DNA of 64,000 bases, taken from the NCBI GenBank assembly GCA_020161655.1, contig JAIUPC010000007.1, positions 186,001-250,000 of the forward strand, in the 5' to 3' direction. Positions 38,257 to 50,874 of this stretch are shown here, piece by piece. A program made the position numbers and the translations under genes. Positions within the stretch are counted from its first letter, which is position 1. Every line of letters starts with the position of its first letter. The notes under the pieces are model-generated. The model saw only the letters and a program-made list of their open reading frames with translations. It had not been told where the DNA came from and made no database searches. The stretch comes from Pseudomonadota bacterium (GTDB lineage Bacteria > Pseudomonadota > Alphaproteobacteria > Rhodobacterales > Rhodobacteraceae).

Positions 38257-39354
38257 TCAGGCGCGCGACCAGAGGCTGAGCGTGTCTACGCCGATCCGCT
38301 CGATGCTTGCGAGGCGGAAGCCTGGGGCATCGGCGAGGGCCTGAAGGCCAAGCGGCCCGACGGCGGGGCGGCCATCCGCGCCGAGCATCGTGCCGGCGGC
38401 GAAGACGGCGAGGTCATCCACCAGACCAGCGACGAGAAGCGATGCGGCGAGCTGGCCTCCGCCTTCGCAGAAAACCCGCGTCAGACCGGCTTCCCCGAGC
38501 GCGGCGAGCATAGCGGTGGGATCGAGGGCGCCGGAGGCCTCTGGCAGTTCGATCAGGCGGGCGCCCGCCTTTTCCCAAGTTTGCCGCGCGGCAGCGGGTG
38601 TCGAGGCGCCATGGAGGAGCCAGACCGGCACCTCGCGCGCGGTCCTTGCCAGTTGGCCTTCCGTTGGCAGATCAAGATTGCGCGACGCGATGATCCGCAC
38701 CGGCTGGTGGCTGATACCAAGGCCGCGCACCGTCAGCGACGGATCATCGGCCCGTGCCGTTCCAGCGCCGATCAGCACAGCGTCATGGCTGGCGCGCATC
38801 GCATGAACACGCCGCCGCGCCTCGGCCCCGGTGATCCATTGGCTTTCGCCGGCAGCCGTCGCGATGCGCCCGTCGAGGCTGGTGGCAAGCTTCAGCGTCA
38901 GCATCGGGCGGCCAAGCCGGATACGGTTCAGAAAGCCCCGCTGGAGCAGCGCCGCTTCCTTGGCCATCAGGCCGGTTTCGACCGAAACGCCCGCCGCCTT
39001 GAGCATCGCATGGCCGCGACCGGCGACGCGCGGATCGGGGTCTTCGATCGCCGAGACGACGCGGGTGACGCCGGCGGCGATCAGCGCCTCCGCACAGGGC
39101 GGGGTGCGGCCATGATGGGCGCAAGGCTCAAGCGTGACATAGGCCGTGGCGCCCCGGGCCGCCGGACCAGCAGCGGCCAAAGCCACCGTCTCGGCATGAG
39201 GCCTGCCGCCGGGTTGTGTCCAGCCGCGCCCGAGGATGCGGCCATCCTTGACGATGATGCAGCCGACCGCCGGATTGGGCCAGACCCACCCCAGCCCGCG
39301 CCGGGCGAGGCCGAGCGCATGGGCCATGTGCTGCCGGTCGGCTTCGCCCGTCAC
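38257..39354 (-). CDS. ribD: Bifunctional diaminohydroxyphosphoribosylaminopyrimidine deaminase / reductase
   Basis: RibD carries out the deamination and reduction steps after GTP cyclohydrolase II. The N-terminal deaminase (about 1-145) has the zinc motifs [11 protein letters not shown] and [16 protein letters not shown]. The C-terminal reductase (about 150-365) reads [27 protein letters not shown] and has the NADPH region [13 protein letters not shown]. The GTG start overlaps the nrdR stop (GTGA). The other riboflavin genes lie 4.8 kb away, beyond the capsule cassette. Confidence 0.96.
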
Positions 39355-39818
39355 TCGTCCGTCGCGCCGGAGGGGCGCAGTTCGGAGACGAAATTGTCGA
39401 AATCGTCGGCGGCCTGGAAGTTCTGGTAGACGCTGGCGAAGCGGACATAGGCGACGGTATCGATCCGGGCCAAGGTTTCCATCACGATGGCGCCGATGGT
39501 CTTCGACGGGATGTCCGTCTCACCCAAGCTTTCGAGCCGCCGCACGATGCCCGAGATCATCTGATCGACACGCTCAGGGTCGATCGGGCGCTTCTGCATC
39601 GCGATGCGGATCGAACGTTCGAGCTTGTCGCGGTCGAAATCCTCGCGCTTGCCGGAGGATTTGATGACGACGAGATCGCGAAGCTGGACGCGCTCATAGG
39701 TTGTGAAGCGCCCGCCGCAAGCCGGACAGAAGCGCCGGCGCCGGATCGCGACGTGATCCTCCGCCGGCCGGGAATCCTTCACCTGCGTATCGACATTTCC
39801 GCAAAACGGACAGCGCAT
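39351..39818 (-). CDS. nrdR: Transcriptional repressor NrdR
   Basis: NrdR senses ATP/dATP and represses ribonucleotide reductase genes. The 155-residue protein has a zinc ribbon with Cys3, Cys6, Cys31 and Cys34 ([20 protein letters not shown]). An ATP-cone domain ([20 protein letters not shown]) follows. The length is normal. It is the first gene of nrdR-ribD, an order common in alphaproteobacteria. I see no clear NrdR box in its own upstream region. Confidence 0.97.
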
Positions 39819-39947: not shown

Positions 39948-41672
39948 TCAGTCCGGCAGATCGCGATAGAGGGTCCAGTCCGTGCCGGCACCCAACACTT
40001 CGGCCCCTTCTACCGGGCGCGCGCCGGCCACGGTGCCGTCGAGGTTGCCGATGTAGCGGCCTTCGCAAAGCACAACAATGTTGTAGCCCGCATCGAGCAT
40101 CGCGCGGACCTGCGCCGTTCCGGCCAGATCCGGGGCCTGCTCCGCGCGCGTCGCGTAGGCCGTCATCGCAGCCGCCAGAGGCCCGATGATCTCAAGCGGC
40201 TGCTGGGTCGCGTTGGCGAAGGTCGGCACCGAGATTCCGCGCGACATCGCCAAGAGGAAGGTGAAGGGCTTGCATCTCCGCATCTCATCCCGCTCCCGGG
40301 CGCCCGGGGCGTAGGCCATGGTTGCAAGACCGCCTTCGGGAAGCGTTTCGGCAAGCGCAAGGAACCGGGAGTAGCCCTGGCGTTCCTGCGCCCAGCCAAG
40401 CGTGACCATCAGGAGATGGACCGGCAACAGCACCATGATCGCCCGCGGGACCATGCGCGCCCCGCTTCTGTCTTGGGACACACTCACCCCCGCCGCAATC
40501 ACGGCCAGAAAGCAGACCGGCAACCGTTCCGGCAGATGGCCGACGCCAAACATGGCGGGCGGCACGATGACCGCCAGCACCGCCAGAAGCGGCACGACCA
40601 GCCACAGGCGCCGGTCGATCCGCAGCCGCCCGCTCAACAGACCAAACCCGATCAGCCCCCAGAGGATCAGGCCGAAAAGCCGGTCTGCAAGTGGCCAGTT
40701 GCTTTCCGCAGCCCGGAGGCCGGCGTCGAGGCGCAGCCAAATCTCCTGCAAGATCCTGGACAGGAAGCTCCCGTCATTGCTGTAGCTGGCGAGGTTGGAA
40801 ATCGCGTCTGTGACGCCGTCCGATCCCTCCACGGTGCTCGTCGCCTGGAACAGGAGGATGGGCAACACCCCGACAACCAGGAGCCGTGCTCCCCGGCGGA
40901 AAAGCTCGCCAAGGTGGAGCCGGCCGCCGGAAACCGACGCCATTGCCTCGACCGAAAACAGCATGAGACCCCAGATCGCGAAGACGAAACCGTGGGTGAA
41001 GAAGATCAGCAGGGCGAAGGCCGTGGTGAAGAAGAGTTGCCGCCGCGGCGCCCCGGCATTGGCGATCCAGAATCCGAGCCCGGCAAGGGCAAAGCTGAAG
41101 CCCAGAAGGAAGTTCGCGAAGCCCCAGCCGAAGACGAAGTTATGCGCAACGATGCCCGCGAGGGCCGCGTTGAGTGGCGCTATCCGGCCATGGAGGCTCC
41201 AGGACAGCGACATGACCCCGAGGACAGGTGCGGCAACGACAATCAACAGGAGTATGCGCGCGGCGATCGTCGCAGGGAGGACCGCGAAAAGCCCGGTCCC
41301 GATCACGTCGAACCCGAGGTTTGGTACAAGCTTCCACGCGATGCGGTAGTTTTCGGCATAGGAAGGATTCCGACCGCCATCGGCGAGGATATCGTAGCGC
41401 AGGGTATGGGCGTAAAAGTCGATCAAGGGAAGTACCGGCGAAACAAACACCGGCAAAAGGCAAAGGAGGACGACGATGGCCACCTTCGACCCGGCCCTCG
41501 GAATGTCGAATGCCGATGCGACAGGAGCGTGCAAGTTCAACGCCTTAAATCCCTGGTTCAATCCGCCCTGAAACCCTGTCGCAACCAAGGCCCCCTGCCA
41601 AGCAGAAATGCCCGGCTTCCGCAAATCTGTCGAGCATGGTTTCCGGCCTTCGCACTTTCTTGCTGCAACCAC
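39948..41672 (-). CDS. Multi-pass membrane protein, GT-C glycosyltransferase-like
   Basis: Up to 574 residues with about ten membrane segments. The first extracytoplasmic loop reads LPLIDFYAHTLRYDILADGG, with acidic residues placed as in GT-C transferases that use lipid-linked sugars. The last 130 residues are a soluble domain with two cysteines and no known fold. I found no diagnostic GT-C subfamily motif, so the call is topological. The outermost start is GTG at 41672, but the first 50 residues look non-conserved. TTG codons near 41540-41585 are possible true starts. A DUF616 glycosyltransferase gene lies 39 bases upstream. Confidence 0.55.
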   Translation of the reverse strand: MVAARKCEGRKPCSTDLRKPGISAWQGALVATGFQGGLNQGFKALNLHAPVASAFDIPRAGSKVAIVVLLCLLPVFVSPVLPLIDFYAHTLRYDILADGGRNPSYAENYRIAWKLVPNLGFDVIGTGLFAVLPATIAARILLLIVVAAPVLGVMSLSWSLHGRIAPLNAALAGIVAHNFVFGWGFANFLLGFSFALAGLGFWIANAGAPRRQLFFTTAFALLIFFTHGFVFAIWGLMLFSVEAMASVSGGRLHLGELFRRGARLLVVGVLPILLFQATSTVEGSDGVTDAISNLASYSNDGSFLSRILQEIWLRLDAGLRAAESNWPLADRLFGLILWGLIGFGLLSGRLRIDRRLWLVVPLLAVLAVIVPPAMFGVGHLPERLPVCFLAVIAAGVSVSQDRSGARMVPRAIMVLLPVHLLMVTLGWAQERQGYSRFLALAETLPEGGLATMAYAPGARERDEMRRCKPFTFLLAMSRGISVPTFANATQQPLEIIGPLAAAMTAYATRAEQAPDLAGTAQVRAMLDAGYNIVVLCEGRYIGNLDGTVAGARPVEGAEVLGAGTDWTLYRDLPD

Positions 41673-41711: not shown

Positions 41712-42455
41712 TCAGCGGCGCCTGCCGCGTGCCAAGTGATAGATTCTCCGCATCTCCTGGTAGAGAACGTTGTGGCGCGGGAAATCGCCCTTCCGCCCCT
41801 TGCGGTCATGGACGGTGAACTCGACCGTATCCTTCCAGTTCAGCGCGGTGATCGGATCGTACTTCAGGCCAAGCTTCCAGGCGAGATAGGGGAAGGATAT
41901 CTGGTCGCGCCGGGAATAGCGCAGGACGTGTTCGAACCAGCGGTCGCCGAAGCGCTGAAGGTCGGGGTCGTGGTGCCGGCGGATGATGAAATGCCCCTCG
42001 ATCAGGCCGGAATGGGCGGGCATCCCCTCGGCACGGTAGTGCCGCATCCGCTCGTGGATGATGCGGCGATCGTCGAGGCCAAGCTCGGCGACGGTCTGGC
42101 CTTCCTGATAGACGCAGTCGCGGCGGAAATGCGGGAAGGCGAAGAAGCCGGCACCCGATTGCGCCCTGACGGCCTCCAGCACCTGAAGCGGATCGGCCTT
42201 CAGCCGCGACTTGTTGTCGATCCAGATCGACCAGTCGGCACCCGGGAAATAGCGGTGCGGCATCAGCTTCGCGCGCCGCGACGCGCGGGCGGCATCAAGG
42301 CCGTCGAGCGGGTCGTGGATGACCTCCACCCCCGGCAGGGTGACGCCGGGACGGTCGGTGAAAAGCACGCGGCGACAACTCTCAAACCCGCCGAATACCA
42401 GCGGATTCAAGGGGTCGGCGCTGCCGTAATGGGCCGAATAGAGGATCAGCGTCAT
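41712..42455 (-). CDS. DUF616 glycosyltransferase-domain protein
   Basis: The 247-residue cytosolic protein begins MTLILYSAHYGSADPLNP. It has the family core RRAKLMPHRYFPGADWSIWIDNKSRL, where the Asp in WIDNK is in the donor-binding position. EGHFIIRRHHDPDLQRFGDRWFEHV and the C-terminal RDQISFPYLAWKLG follow. Related DUF616 domains are found in bacterial and plant glycosyltransferases. The acceptor is unknown. It precedes the GT-C-like gene by 39 bases, suggesting a two-gene glycan unit. Confidence 0.75.
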   Translation of the reverse strand: MTLILYSAHYGSADPLNPLVFGGFESCRRVLFTDRPGVTLPGVEVIHDPLDGLDAARASRRAKLMPHRYFPGADWSIWIDNKSRLKADPLQVLEAVRAQSGAGFFAFPHFRRDCVYQEGQTVAELGLDDRRIIHERMRHYRAEGMPAHSGLIEGHFIIRRHHDPDLQRFGDRWFEHVLRYSRRDQISFPYLAWKLGLKYDPITALNWKDTVEFTVHDRKGRKGDFPRHNVLYQEMRRIYHLARGRRR

Positions 42456-44257: not shown

Positions 44258-44647
44258 CTAATACCAGAGAAAACGCATATCGAGACAGTAGTTCGACTTG
44301 GCCGTACCAGCGGAAATTCCGCCATCGCCTTTCTTGGTCCCGAATGAAGAAAACAGCTCCATCGGCACCTTCTTCGCCTCGTCCAGCGTAAAGGTGATGC
44401 CCTGCCCCGCCTTCCTCGGCGCTGGCGACTCGCGGAAGATGCGGGTCTTCGACGGCATTCCAAGCCCCCGGGAGACGAAATCTCCGGCGGCGCAGAGATA
44501 GGCTGTCTCGTGCCTTGATGAATTGTAGACCACCTGGAATTGCTGCGGTCCTGTCTGTTCGACCTGATAGCCGTTCACGGCGCGAAATGCAGAAGCGGGA
44601 GAGGACAATGCGGCCACTAGTACAATGGAGACAATGACGTGTTTCAT
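44258..44647 (-). CDS. Small secreted two-cysteine protein, paralogue A
   Basis: The 129-residue precursor has a signal peptide (MKHVIVSIVLVAAL, cleavage after SPASA). The mature part starts FRAVNGYQV. Its landmarks are YLCAAGDFVSRGLGM, TRIFRESPAPRKAGQGITFTLD, GDGGISAG and a second Cys at 121. It aligns without gaps to the next two genes, with Cys52 and Cys121 in register, suggesting one disulfide. The tail RFLWY is aromatic. I recognise no named family. It is the last of three tandem copies, 224 bases after paralogue B. Confidence 0.78.
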   Translation of the reverse strand: MKHVIVSIVLVAALSSPASAFRAVNGYQVEQTGPQQFQVVYNSSRHETAYLCAAGDFVSRGLGMPSKTRIFRESPAPRKAGQGITFTLDEAKKVPMELFSSFGTKKGDGGISAGTAKSNYCLDMRFLWY

Positions 44648-44871
44648 GACGACCTGCCTTGCAAATGTACCCGGCAAGCTTAGCCGAAGATTGGGTATTT
44701 CGCGAGAGCCAAGCGCCCGTCGGCAAGGGAAAAAGCCGGCGAAGTTCTCCTTGGAAGCGCATGATTGGAATTTCTGTATCGCAATAGTTGTCATGCCTGC
44801 TGGCAATCAAGCGCTACGGCTCCGTCATTGGTGGCGACCGGCATTTCGGATCGGAATGCGGCAGCCCGCGT

Positions 44872-45261
44872 TCAGCGCCAGAAACTGCCGCTCCTGTGGC
44901 AGAAATCGGATCGGGCACCGGCAACGGAAATGCCGCCATCGGTATTGTCCGAAATAAGCACGGTGTAGAGCTTCATCGGCACCATCTCGGCCGGATCAAG
45001 CGTGAAGGTGATGCCCTGCCCCGATTTCCTCGGCGCGGGCGAATGGCGGTAGATACGGGTGGTTGAGCGCATCCCGAGGCCGCGGGAAACATAATCGGCG
45101 GCGGCACAAAGGTAATCCGTCTTGCGCCTCGTGTCGCCAAAGTCGACGAGGAAGGCACTTTCCCCTGTGGGCGTGACCTCAAGACCATTCATCGCCCTAA
45201 AAGCGAAAGCCGGGGCGGCGGAAGCGGCGACGAGCGCCAGGGCAGCAAGAACGCGTTTCAA
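44872..45261 (-). CDS. Small secreted two-cysteine protein, paralogue B
   Basis: The 129-residue precursor starts at TTG (MKRVLAALALVAAS on translation) with GGGAG seven bases upstream. The signal peptide ends APAFA. Landmarks are FRAMNGLEV, YLCAAADYVSRGLGM, TRIYRHSPAPRKSGQGITFTLD, DGGIS and the second Cys at 121. It keeps both cysteines of the family and aligns gap-free with its neighbours. Its 95-106 segment (MKLYTVLISDN) differs most from A and C. A longer in-frame start at 45330 would bury the signal peptide, so I reject it. Function unknown. Confidence 0.75.
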   Translation of the reverse strand: MKRVLAALALVAASAAPAFAFRAMNGLEVTPTGESAFLVDFGDTRRKTDYLCAAADYVSRGLGMRSTTRIYRHSPAPRKSGQGITFTLDPAEMVPMKLYTVLISDNTDGGISVAGARSDFCHRSGSFWR

Positions 45262-45330
45262 CTCTGAACTCCCGGTTGTTCGCTGGTGCATCTGGTTTCC
45301 GGCATCCCTGACTTCGGGTTCCGGCATCAC

Positions 45331-45717
45331 TTAGAAATAGATCGGTATGCGCGGACAGTAGTTGTCCCGCGCAACGCCCGCCGAGATGCCGCCGTCGCCC
45401 TTGTTCTTGCTGAAGCTGGAGAGCATGCCAAGCTCGACCTTCTTCGTTTCGTCGAGCGTGAAGGTGATGCCCTGACCCTGCTTGCGGGGGGGCGGCGAGG
45501 CACGATAGATCCGCGTCAGCGCGGACATCCCGAGCGCCCGCATCACATAATCGCCGGCGGCGCAGAGATACTGCTTTTCGTTGTAGGGGCTTGGGAATTC
45601 GACGACGAAAGTCTGCGCGTCAATCGCGTTAACGTCCATGCCGTTCCTGGCGCTGAAGGCGAAAGCCGGACTTGCCAGAAGGAGGATGGCGAGGGAACTC
45701 GAAACAAGGCGGACCAT
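45331..45717 (-). CDS. Small secreted two-cysteine protein, paralogue C
   Basis: The 128-residue precursor has a signal peptide (MVRLVSSSLAILLLASPAFA). The mature part is FSARNGMDV, YLCAAGDYVMRALGM, TRIYRASPPPRKQGQGITFTLD, GDGGISAG and Cys121, ending PIYF. The ATG at 45717 has AAGGA upstream. It is the first of the three tandem copies, 69 bases before paralogue B and 97 bases after the SH3b-MliC gene. All four are on the same strand, so one transcript is plausible. Function unknown. Confidence 0.78.
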   Translation of the reverse strand: MVRLVSSSLAILLLASPAFAFSARNGMDVNAIDAQTFVVEFPSPYNEKQYLCAAGDYVMRALGMSALTRIYRASPPPRKQGQGITFTLDETKKVELGMLSSFSKNKGDGGISAGVARDNYCPRIPIYF

Positions 45718-45814: not shown

Positions 45815-46477
45815 CTATCTGGTGCAGTGGGTGCTGCGACCATCCGGCCAGCGCCATTCCGCCATGGACGCCCCACCGCGCAGACGCGCACCGTCGCCGG
45901 CAGCGAACGAATAGGGCAGAACAAGATGCTCGCGCCTGAGCACGAGATAGGTTTCGCCGCCGATCATCACGTTGGCCTTGTCGCCGCCGCGATAGATCAC
46001 AAGCGTCAGTCGCTGGTTCGAGGAGCAGGCATACCTCAGCCGGGTTTCAACGTCGGGCGCCGGGGCAATTGGCACCACCGGGACGGCTCCTTCGCCCGCC
46101 AGCTCAAGGAACTTCGCGGAGGCCCACCCAACATCCCCATTTGCCCGGCGCACCTCATACCAGATGCGTCCGTTGGCTTTGCACCCGTAGGCAATCGAGC
46201 GGCCCGTATCGTTCAAGCCACCCTCGGCACCGGAACAGGTGGTCTCACACTGCCCCTTTGCCCGCGACGCCCGGCCGGTGGAAGTCACGCCCCGCTCGCC
46301 CGGCCTGATGCGCGATACAAGCGCATAGGACGCGGCTGGACCCGACCGCATGTTCAGCGTGTCATTGGCCGCCACGCCAGTAACTGCAAGCGGCGTGCCC
46401 TTTACCGGATCGCAGATGGCTTCCGCTGAAGCCGGCAAAGCCGAGAGCAGGAATAAACCGAGGGCACGCAGGATCAC
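45815..46477 (-). CDS. Exported SH3b-MliC-like protein (candidate lysozyme inhibitor)
   Basis: The product (about 220 residues from GTG at 46477) has a signal peptide ending LPASA. A bacterial SH3 domain follows: TLNMRSGPAASYALVSRI to VGWASAKFLELAG, with a Cys-containing insert CETTCSGAEGG. After a Pro/Ala linker, the last 75 residues read RLRYACSSNQRLTLVIYRGG, an ANVMIGGETYLVL strand, GDGARLRGG and a terminal Cys. This matches the MliC/PliC fold that inhibits C-type lysozyme. The SH3b part may bind cell wall. The MliC call is by pattern only. An upstream ATG at 46609 would bury the signal peptide. Confidence 0.72.
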   Translation of the reverse strand: MILRALGLFLLSALPASAEAICDPVKGTPLAVTGVAANDTLNMRSGPAASYALVSRIRPGERGVTSTGRASRAKGQCETTCSGAEGGLNDTGRSIAYGCKANGRIWYEVRRANGDVGWASAKFLELAGEGAVPVVPIAPAPDVETRLRYACSSNQRLTLVIYRGGDKANVMIGGETYLVLRREHLVLPYSFAAGDGARLRGGASMAEWRWPDGRSTHCTR

Positions 46478-48810: not shown

Positions 48811-50748
48811 TCACTGTTTCTTCTTCACCCAAGCAGCCCCGTCGATCAGACGCTGCAATTGGGCCGAGAGCGCGGCACGGTCTTCGCCACCCTCGGAGGC
48901 TTCGTCAAGCGGCGTGCGCTCGGCCCGGTGTCTCGCTTCGGCGGCCTGCGTCAGACGCCAGGTCACGCCTTCATCGGCCAGCCCCCCGAGGTCCTCCATG
49001 GCATCCTCGATTTCGGCCTGGGCGCCGCGCCGGGACTCCAGCTTCGCCAGTTCCTCGGCGAGGCACATCAGCGCCAGATCAGGGTCTGCGTCGTCGCGTA
49101 CCGGCGGCGCAATCTGCACATGGGCAAGGGCCATCAGCTTTTCAACCTCGGCCCCGGCACGCGCCTCGATTTTCTGGCGGAAGCCGGCCTGACCGCCCTC
49201 GCAATGCAGTTCCGCGAGAAGCGCATGACGCAGCCGGTCATGACCGGGATCGCGCATTCCGACAGTCTCGAACTGGCTTTCAAGCCGCTCCAGCGTCTTC
49301 GGATGGACAAGCGCGATGGCAAGGATCATCGCCTCATGGAGGTATTCGTCAACCTCCGGTCCCCTTGCTGCGGCCAGAAGCGAACCGCGCGTGGCGGGGA
49401 GCGGCAGGCCGGGCGGCGGCTTGCCGGGCTTGCCCCGCCCACGCGGCACGAAGGCGGGGCGTGCCGTCCCGAACAGCTCGCGCCTGAGGCGGTTGATCTC
49501 ATCGCCGTAATGGGCGCGGATCGAAGGATCGGCGATCCGCTTGATCGCGGCGCGCAAGGATTTGTCGAGCGTGGCCTTGCGTTCCGGGCTGTCGACAACC
49601 TTGCCTTCCGTCTCGCGCCGCCAGAGAAGTTTGACCATCGGCTCGGCTGCGGCAATCGCCTTGGCCATCGCCTCGCGCCCGCGCATCCTGATCAGGTCGT
49701 CGGGATCAAGGCCTTCGGGCAGGATCACGAACCTGAGGCCCTGCCCTGCCTCCAGCATCGGCAGCGCAAGGTCGATAAGCCGCGTCGCGGCCCTGATGCC
49801 CGCCGTATCGCCATCGAGCATGATGATCGGCTCGGGGTGCAGCCGCCAGATCAGCCGCAGCTGCTCCTCGGTGATCGCCGTGCCAAGGGGGGCGACCGCG
49901 CCCTCGAACCCCGCCGTTACCAGCGCGATCACATCCATATAGCCCTCGGCCACCACCAAGGGCTGACCCTTGCCCGAGGCCTCGCGCGCCGGACCGTGGT
50001 TGTAAAGACTGCGGCCCTTGTCGAAAAGCTCGGTCTCGGGTGAGTTCAGGTATTTCGCGCTGTCATTCGGGTCCATCGCCCGGCCGCCGAAGGCGATGCA
50101 GCGCCCGCGCGCATCGCGGATCGGAAAGATGATCCGGTTGCGGAAGGTGTCATAGGGCGCCTTGCCCTTCTGGCTCGGCCGCGCCAGCCCCGCGCCAAGG
50201 ATCAGGTCATCGGCGATCCCGCGCCCCTTCAACTGATCCCAAAGCGCCTGCCAGCCCTCGGGCGCAAAGCCGATCTCGAAGCGGTCCTGCGCCGCCTCGG
50301 GCAGCTTGCGCTTTGCCAGATAGTCCCGCGCCGCCGCCCCCGCGCCCGTCTTCAACTGCAACCGGTAAAAGCGCACCGCCTCTTCCATCACCGCCGCCAG
50401 CTCGCTCCGCCGGTCCGCCGCCTGAGCCTCGCGCGGATCGCGGGCCGGCATCGCCATCCCGGCCTCGCGCGCCAGGGCCTCCACCGCCTCCATGAAGGAC
50501 ATGTTCTCGGCCTCGCGCAGGAAGGTCAGCGCATCGCCCTTGGCGTGGCAGCCGAAGCAGTAGTAATAACCCTTCCTGTCATCGACATGGAACGAGGCGC
50601 TCTTTTCCTGATGGAAGGGGCACGGCGCCCAGAGATCGCCCTTGGCCTGATTGGACTTTCGCTGGTCCCATGTGACCTTGCGCCCGATCACCGTCGAAAG
50701 GGTGACGCGGGTCCGAAGCTCATCAAGGAAACCGGGGGGCAGACTCAT
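48811..50748 (-). CDS. dnaG: DNA primase
   Basis: DnaG makes RNA primers for replication. The 645-residue protein has the N-terminal CHC2 zinc finger (CPFHQEKSASFHV and YYCFGCHAKGDALTFL). The TOPRIM catalytic core carries VVAEGYMDVIAL and IIMLDGDTAGIRAA. A less conserved C-terminal DnaB-binding region rich in Glu/Ala follows. ATG at 50748 (MSLPPGFLDELR) gives the normal N-terminus. rpoD follows, and soxG precedes on the same strand with a hairpin between them. Confidence 0.97.
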   Translation of the reverse strand: MSLPPGFLDELRTRVTLSTVIGRKVTWDQRKSNQAKGDLWAPCPFHQEKSASFHVDDRKGYYYCFGCHAKGDALTFLREAENMSFMEAVEALAREAGMAMPARDPREAQAADRRSELAAVMEEAVRFYRLQLKTGAGAAARDYLAKRKLPEAAQDRFEIGFAPEGWQALWDQLKGRGIADDLILGAGLARPSQKGKAPYDTFRNRIIFPIRDARGRCIAFGGRAMDPNDSAKYLNSPETELFDKGRSLYNHGPAREASGKGQPLVVAEGYMDVIALVTAGFEGAVAPLGTAITEEQLRLIWRLHPEPIIMLDGDTAGIRAATRLIDLALPMLEAGQGLRFVILPEGLDPDDLIRMRGREAMAKAIAAAEPMVKLLWRRETEGKVVDSPERKATLDKSLRAAIKRIADPSIRAHYGDEINRLRRELFGTARPAFVPRGRGKPGKPPPGLPLPATRGSLLAAARGPEVDEYLHEAMILAIALVHPKTLERLESQFETVGMRDPGHDRLRHALLAELHCEGGQAGFRQKIEARAGAEVEKLMALAHVQIAPPVRDDADPDLALMCLAEELAKLESRRGAQAEIEDAMEDLGGLADEGVTWRLTQAAEARHRAERTPLDEASEGGEDRAALSAQLQRLIDGAAWVKKKQ

Positions 50749-50874
50749 CGCGCGAATATCGGCGCTCGCCCCCCCCTCCGCAAGGGCCAGACACGTCCCG
50801 CACTTTCTGTCCGAAAATACTCCCGCCGGAGGCACCGGAGCCGCGCGCCCCGCGCGGCGACCAACGAAAGTCTT

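What the first reader, a model, noticed from the sequence alone, without database searches (positions are those of the whole stretch)
44258..45717. Tandem triplet of small secreted two-cysteine proteins of no recognised family
Three consecutive minus-strand genes encode precursors of 129, 129 and 128 residues. They align without a single gap. Each has a signal peptide ending at residue 20, cysteines at 52 and 121, and the blocks YLCAA-D, TRI-R-SP-PRK-GQGITFTLD and DGGIS. The mature parts have diverged mainly in the first 30 residues, around 92-106 and at the aromatic tails. Fixed spacing and one likely disulfide suggest a compact fold kept under selection while surfaces diversify. That pattern fits secreted effectors, inhibitors or self/non-self surface proteins. 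The spacers (69 and 224 bases) hold no other gene.
Basis: partly seen in the sequence, partly recalled or inferred. Interest (0 to 1): 0.7.

Follow-up and report, generated by a model that had tools for sequence, protein, structure and literature searches.

The report
Rhodobacteraceae periplasmic disulfide-protein gene array
Three side-by-side genes make small exported proteins of an unnamed family, found so far only in the bacterial family Rhodobacteraceae, usually kept at one chromosome site and changing slowly, so probably a cell-envelope helper and not a weapon.

Summary
Three minus-strand genes (45331-45717, 44872-45261, 44258-44647) encode 128-129 aa paralogues, 43-52% identical, with a signal peptide ending at residue 20 and cysteines at 52 and 121. 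None of 100 relatives gives a credible Pfam match. The family was found in 134 of 395 Rhodobacteraceae genomes and nowhere else convincingly in the class samples; 74 carriers show one copy, 60 two to five. All 100 distinct members compared keep exactly two mature cysteines at the same places; no polar residue is invariant, so an enzyme is unlikely. Of 43 neighbourhoods inspected (not a random sample), 36 lie at one site, after dnaG-rpoD and before yjbQ/nrdR-ribD. Array copies are old: place in the array follows the tree. Whole-gene dN/dS is 0.04-0.17 for the window's copies and 0.02-0.34 in ten other pairs: usually faster than the core neighbours, but purifying, so diversifying conflict is not supported at gene level. 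The SH3 gene next door has no match at the other 42 loci. Best reading: a lineage-specific, disulfide-held, non-catalytic periplasmic protein with position-specialised paralogues; ligand or partner unknown.

The parts
45331..45717 (-). copy 1, 128 aa; signal peptide residues 1-20, cysteines 52 and 121; groups in the tree with the single copies of L072 and L035
44872..45261 (-). copy 2, 129 aa, TTG start; signal peptide 1-20, cysteines 52 and 121
44258..44647 (-). copy 3, 129 aa; signal peptide 1-20, cysteines 52 and 121; the most constrained copy (dN/dS 0.04)
45262..45330 (-). 69-base spacer between copies 1 and 2
44648..44871 (-). 224-base spacer between copies 2 and 3; no Rfam match at or above the gathering score
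46708..48753 (-). rpoD, the conserved upstream landmark of the array site (dnaG at 48811-50835 before it)
38257..39818 (-). ribD (38257-39354) and nrdR (39351-39818), the conserved downstream landmark
45815..46477 (-). SH3-domain protein with a signal-peptide-like start, between rpoD and the array; not part of the conserved locus

Best explanation
The triplet is a local array of a Rhodobacteraceae-restricted family of small exported proteins. Shown by computation: homology, restriction to Rhodobacteraceae in the genomes sampled, two invariant mature cysteines, a frequent site after dnaG-rpoD, old position-specific paralogues, and purifying selection. Inferred: each precursor is exported by Sec, loses about its first 20 residues, and folds in the periplasm as a domain of about 108 residues in which one disulfide clamps the conserved WCAAGD/LCAAGD segment to the C-terminal segment. 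With no invariant polar residue it is more likely a binding or structural protein than an enzyme. Most members are basic, so a polyanionic envelope component (lipopolysaccharide, peptidoglycan, membrane phospholipid) or a partner envelope protein is the likeliest target. The paralogues are stably specialised versions or subunits, probably transcribed together within the array and apart from rpoD.
For: Homology and copy number. 134 of 395 Rhodobacteraceae genomes with each of two profiles. Class samples: 4 of 385 and 8 of 386 genomes matched; in each, four are Rhodobacteraceae and the other four of the second are weak. Exactly two mature cysteines in 100 of 100; V29, V39, W51, A54, F86, A116 at least 90% conserved, all core-like residues. 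Site: 36 of 43 loci lie beside rpoD, nrdR or ribD; in all 31 with rpoD in range the family genes lie downstream of it on its strand. Array gaps are short (29 of 34 under 100 bases), and 7 of 18 rpoD-to-array gaps examined hold a perfect hairpin with a T-rich tail. Place in the array follows the tree: 5 changes, reached by 1 of 1000 within-array shuffles. Whole-gene dN/dS 0.04-0.17 and 0.02-0.34 in 10 further pairs. pI 8.0 or more in 74 of 100.
Against: No structure could be predicted, so fold, disulfide and binding role are inferred; the only secondary-structure guess is a crude averaged propensity. Charge is not conserved (pI 4.3-11.4), which weakens the polyanion idea. The family is missing from two thirds of the genomes sampled, so it is not indispensable. 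It evolves faster than rpoD in 7 of the 8 pairs with an rpoD control. Short segments of the window copies are not clearly constrained: signal peptide of copy 2 dN/dS 0.86, tails of copies 1 and 2 with only nonsynonymous changes. In 11 of 18 rpoD-array gaps no terminator was found, so read-through from rpoD is possible. No partner gene that would name a pathway was seen.
Confidence: 0.45

Rival explanations
1. Periplasmic inhibitor of a hydrolase (lysozyme or protease of hosts, grazers, phages or competitors): a small disulfide-bonded protein that plugs an enzyme, in several copies for several enzymes.
For: Size, export signal, two invariant cysteines, long-kept paralogues, patchy presence, 134 of 395.
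Against: No credible match to any Pfam family in 100 members; no PDB relative by profile; no sign of fast evolution over whole genes.
Confidence: 0.2
2. Secreted effector, toxin or self/non-self surface protein under diversifying selection.
For: Tandem copies with diverged N-terminal part, loop and tails; faster evolution than core neighbours; tails of copies 1 and 2 with only nonsynonymous changes, two each.
Against: Whole-gene dN/dS far below 1; position-specific inheritance, mostly at one site; no phage match and one isolated PADLOC hit in 40 members.
Confidence: 0.08
3. Subunits of one hetero-oligomeric envelope structure: the array copies assemble together.
For: Tight spacing and positional orthology across genera.
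Against: 74 of 134 carriers show one copy only, so hetero-assembly cannot be general.
Confidence: 0.12
4. A small periplasmic enzyme or cofactor carrier.
For: R69 (76%) and the aromatic at 71 (Y 76, W 14, F 8 of 100) are widely conserved.
Against: Only the two cysteines are invariant in 100 members; no His, Asp or Glu reaches 90%; with two cysteines about 70 residues apart there is no CXXCH heme motif.
Confidence: 0.07

Closest known systems
Rhodobacterales-specific signature proteins of unknown function (Gupta and Mok 2007, PMC2241609; passages seen)
   Same: restricted to this lineage, no known domain
   Different: the 29 proteins of Table 4A are described as present in all Rhodobacterales available; this family is in about a third of the genomes sampled and often in tandem. 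Whether it is in their tables was not checked
Small periplasmic lysozyme-inhibitor families (MliC, PliC, Ivy; named from recall)
   Same: small size and export; disulfide likely
   Different: no credible Pfam match in any of 100 members; no direct comparison was run
YjbQ/UPF0047, the next gene at many loci
   Same: within 600 bases on the same strand at 19 of the 22 loci where it was found
   Different: an unrelated protein with its own family match

Membership tests
Rhodobacteraceae small periplasmic two-cysteine family (defined here) | profile match over most of the precursor | tested here: met
   E 1e-46 to 3e-44 for the three copies, by construction since they are in the profile; the independent test is E 1e-37 and 8e-31 by single-sequence search
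Rhodobacteraceae small periplasmic two-cysteine family (defined here) | exactly two mature cysteines, in WCAA/LCAA and near the C-terminus | tested here: met
   100 of 100
Rhodobacteraceae small periplasmic two-cysteine family (defined here) | site beside rpoD, nrdR or ribD | tested here: met
   window and 35 of 42 other loci
Rhodobacteraceae small periplasmic two-cysteine family (defined here) | disulfide between the two cysteines | not testable with these tools
   structure prediction switched off
Any Pfam, NCBIfam or PHROGs family | credible profile match | tested here: not met
   Pfam 100 members, best E 0.025; NCBIfam 40 members, best 0.021; PHROGs 40 members, best 0.075;
Anti-phage defence (PADLOC) | match to a defence protein model | tested here: not met
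   1 of 40 members at E 0.0023 to a type I methyltransferase model, judged chance
Diversifying effector or self/non-self family | dN/dS raised above 1 or fast turnover of copies | tested here: not met
   0.02-0.34 over whole genes; positional orthology; no site-wise test was run, and short tail segments are undecided
Lysozyme inhibitors | inhibition of lysozyme, inhibitor fold | not testable with these tools
   only the absence of Pfam matches was tested

The most novel reading that the evidence does not exclude
An undescribed protein fold: an ancient Rhodobacteraceae periplasmic module whose array copies are position-specialised subunits or binders, held through much of the radiation of the group at one chromosomal site and forming part of its envelope.
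Probability: 0.15. Interest if true: 0.5.

Novelty: new member of a known kind. Interest (0 to 1): 0.32.

Why it matters
About a third of the Rhodobacteraceae genomes sampled carry this family, and no Pfam or NCBIfam model fits it. A profile, copy numbers, a favoured site and position-specific paralogues make it a clean target for annotation and for deletion studies. It is also a caution that tandem copies with diverged loops need not mean an arms race.

Tried and rejected
Family libraries gave nothing credible: Pfam, NCBIfam, PHROGs, PADLOC, PDB by profile (21, 49; best E 0.14 and 2.1). Viral contigs: 3 pattern hits, none a relative. Phage records: none. Plasmid records: two Paracoccus replicons with a relative's protein as query, one annotated as a hypothetical protein, and none with a second-clade query. 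Rfam: none (54). Promoter scan: 1 found, 0.7 expected; terminator-like sites 5 against 2.9 expected (53). Repeats: the three three-copy families are the homologous genes themselves, the rest are short pairs (55).

Shared operon with the SH3 gene: rejected, no match at the other 42 loci. Co-transcription with rpoD: doubtful, terminators in 7 of 18 gaps (only gaps of 20-420 bases were examined, 18 of the 31 loci with rpoD). Diversifying selection: rejected at gene level only. Catalysis: judged unlikely. First ORF calling missed members in some loci and was replaced.

Limits. The 43 neighbourhoods were chosen by me (top hits and multi-copy genomes), so 36 of 43 is not an unbiased rate. In some searches only about ten candidates per genome were scored, so copy numbers are lower bounds, which scored nearly all candidates, gave 18 of 44. 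Tree: 100 rows, 136 columns, 45 of 97 inner branches open; 156 hits were cut to 100 by removing duplicates, seven loci repeating the window's own genes having been left out first. The 13 arrays of the positional test were picked after seeing the tree; 3 of 12 locus pairs gave no pair at 55% identity or more, one of 11 pairs had saturated dS, and two yjbQ controls failed (infinite values). Six of 100 members match a lipobox pattern; I judged two plausible by position. The AxA test (100 of 100) used a very loose pattern and proves little. Four weak class hits outside the family (E 0.003-0.007, short, three with a stop inside) were judged chance. Paper searches, seen as listings with abstract starts, in which I recognised no description; passages of PMC2241609 and PMC2953401. 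Most listed papers were not opened.

Full report
What is there. Three genes on the minus strand, 45331-45717, 44872-45261 and 44258-44647, encode precursors of 128, 129 and 129 residues. The spacers are 69 and 224 bases. A search of the window's genome (4.08 Mb, 24 contigs) with copy 1 returns these three and no other match.

The family. A profile of the three found relatives in 109 of 394 genomes of the taxonomic family. A 40-member profile and a 100-member profile each found it in 134 of 395 genomes at E up to 1e-5, so the count looks saturated at this sensitivity. In one search, 74 carriers show one copy, 31 two, 19 three, 7 four and 3 five, at least 236 matches (tallied). In class-wide samples matches came from 4 of 385 genomes and 8 of 386; four in each are Rhodobacteraceae, and the other four are short weak hits, three with a stop inside. 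The order sample gave 18 of 44, all 44 genomes being of the same family. The name Rhodobacteraceae comes from the named relatives: Rhodobacteraceae bacterium UBA6273, which has the same triplet (L034), and isolate DAH.2 (L035); two Paracoccus replicons also hold a copy.

Conservation. In 100 distinct members every one has exactly two cysteines after the signal-peptide part, aligned at positions 52 and 121. V29, V39, W51, A54, F86 and A116 are at least 90% conserved. Residue 51 is W in 92 and L in 8; the eight with L in the 40-member alignment are the window triplet, its UBA6273 orthologues, L035 and the same-genus copy. No polar residue is invariant; R69 (76%), N25 (72%) and D56 (69%) are the best kept charged or amide residues. 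This is the pattern of a structural core held by a disulfide, not of a catalytic site (inference). Two members have a plausible lipobox, which would suit an envelope-facing place. 74 of 100 have a computed pI of 8.0 or more, but the range is 4.3 to 11.4.

Location. I inspected 43 neighbourhoods (the window, two, forty, chosen by me). In 36 the family lies beside rpoD, nrdR or ribD; in all 31 with rpoD in range it is downstream of rpoD on the same strand in one to four copies, 0 to 2266 bases away. The typical order is soxA-soxG-dnaG-rpoD-array-yjbQ-nrdR-ribD. Family matches for rpoD, dnaG, nrdR, ribD and yjbQ are; soxG there is below its cut-off, and soxA is recalled. In the other seven loci no landmark was in range; three of these are second loci of genomes that also have the rpoD-site copy, and some are short contigs. 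Array gaps are mostly short (29 of 34 under 100 bases, from hit ends). Of 18 rpoD-array gaps examined, 7 contain a perfect hairpin followed by a T-rich tail, so the array is probably its own transcription unit at least in some genomes. The SH3-domain gene at 45815-46477 has no match at any other of these loci.

Evolution. Between window and UBA6273, dN/dS is 0.12, 0.17 and 0.04 for copies 1, 2 and 3. Neighbours give 0.02 (nrdR), 0.04 (the YghX-type hydrolase), 0.13 (41712-42455), 0.16 (formyltetrahydrofolate cyclo-ligase), 0.19 (ribD) and 0.20 (39948-41672). By segment, residues 50-91 hardly change in any copy (dN 0-0.02), while the signal peptide, residues 21-49 and the tail change more in copies 1 and 2; the tails show two nonsynonymous and no synonymous change each, and the signal peptide of copy 2 has 0.86. 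These segments are too short to decide. In other genera 11 orthologue pairs were found, ten with measurable dN/dS of 0.02-0.34; the family gene is faster than rpoD in 7 of the 8 pairs with an rpoD control, but always well below 1. In the tree copy 1 groups with the single copies of L072 (same genus) and L035, and copies 2 and 3 group together, so the duplication appears older than the split from those relatives (SH-aLRT 88-94, not firm); another same-genus copy, L073, falls elsewhere. In 13 arrays of the other large clade (34 members), being first or later in the array needs 5 changes on the tree, reached by 1 of 1000 within-array shuffles (mean 10.6); of 62 members at multi-copy loci 15 have their nearest relative at the same locus. 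The paralogues are therefore mostly old and keep their places.

Interpretation. Old, position-specific paralogues at a favoured chromosomal site under purifying selection do not look like an arms race. Best supported is a lineage-specific periplasmic protein held by one disulfide, non-catalytic, acting by binding an envelope component or a partner protein. Steps shown: homology, distribution, site, cysteine invariance, selection. Steps inferred: export route, disulfide, fold, binding.

Novelty. No Pfam, NCBIfam or PHROGs model fits credibly, no solved relative was found by sequence, and in seven paper searches I recognised no description among the listings. Lineage-specific hypothetical proteins are themselves a known kind (PMC2241609, passages). 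I score this as an unnamed family of ordinary type with some interesting evolution.

Noticed in passing
window 45815-46477, minus strand: SH3_3-domain protein with a signal-peptide-like start between rpoD and the array; no match at the 42 other loci examined, so perhaps a recent insertion or a very local gene.
   Followed up: partly
window 41712-42455 and 39948-41672, minus strand: A TOD1/MUCI70-type glycosyltransferase domain (PF04765) next to a 574-aa protein, membrane-like by eye, with no Pfam match at 1e-5 or NCBIfam match at 1e-10; both also in UBA6273 (L034).
   Followed up: partly
L041:1501-1908 and L032:273-689: Two family members have a lipobox-like end of the signal peptide and may be lipoproteins.
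   Followed up: partly
L095 and L108: Two genomes carry family arrays with shared neighbours of another kind (clusters c37-c42), a possible second conserved location.
   Followed up: no
L093:12525-12848 and seven other loci (cluster c12): Another small exported-looking protein of about 100 aa beside dnaG at 8 loci; the three printed have two cysteines after the signal-peptide part, and the one scanned has no Pfam match at 1e-5.
   Followed up: no
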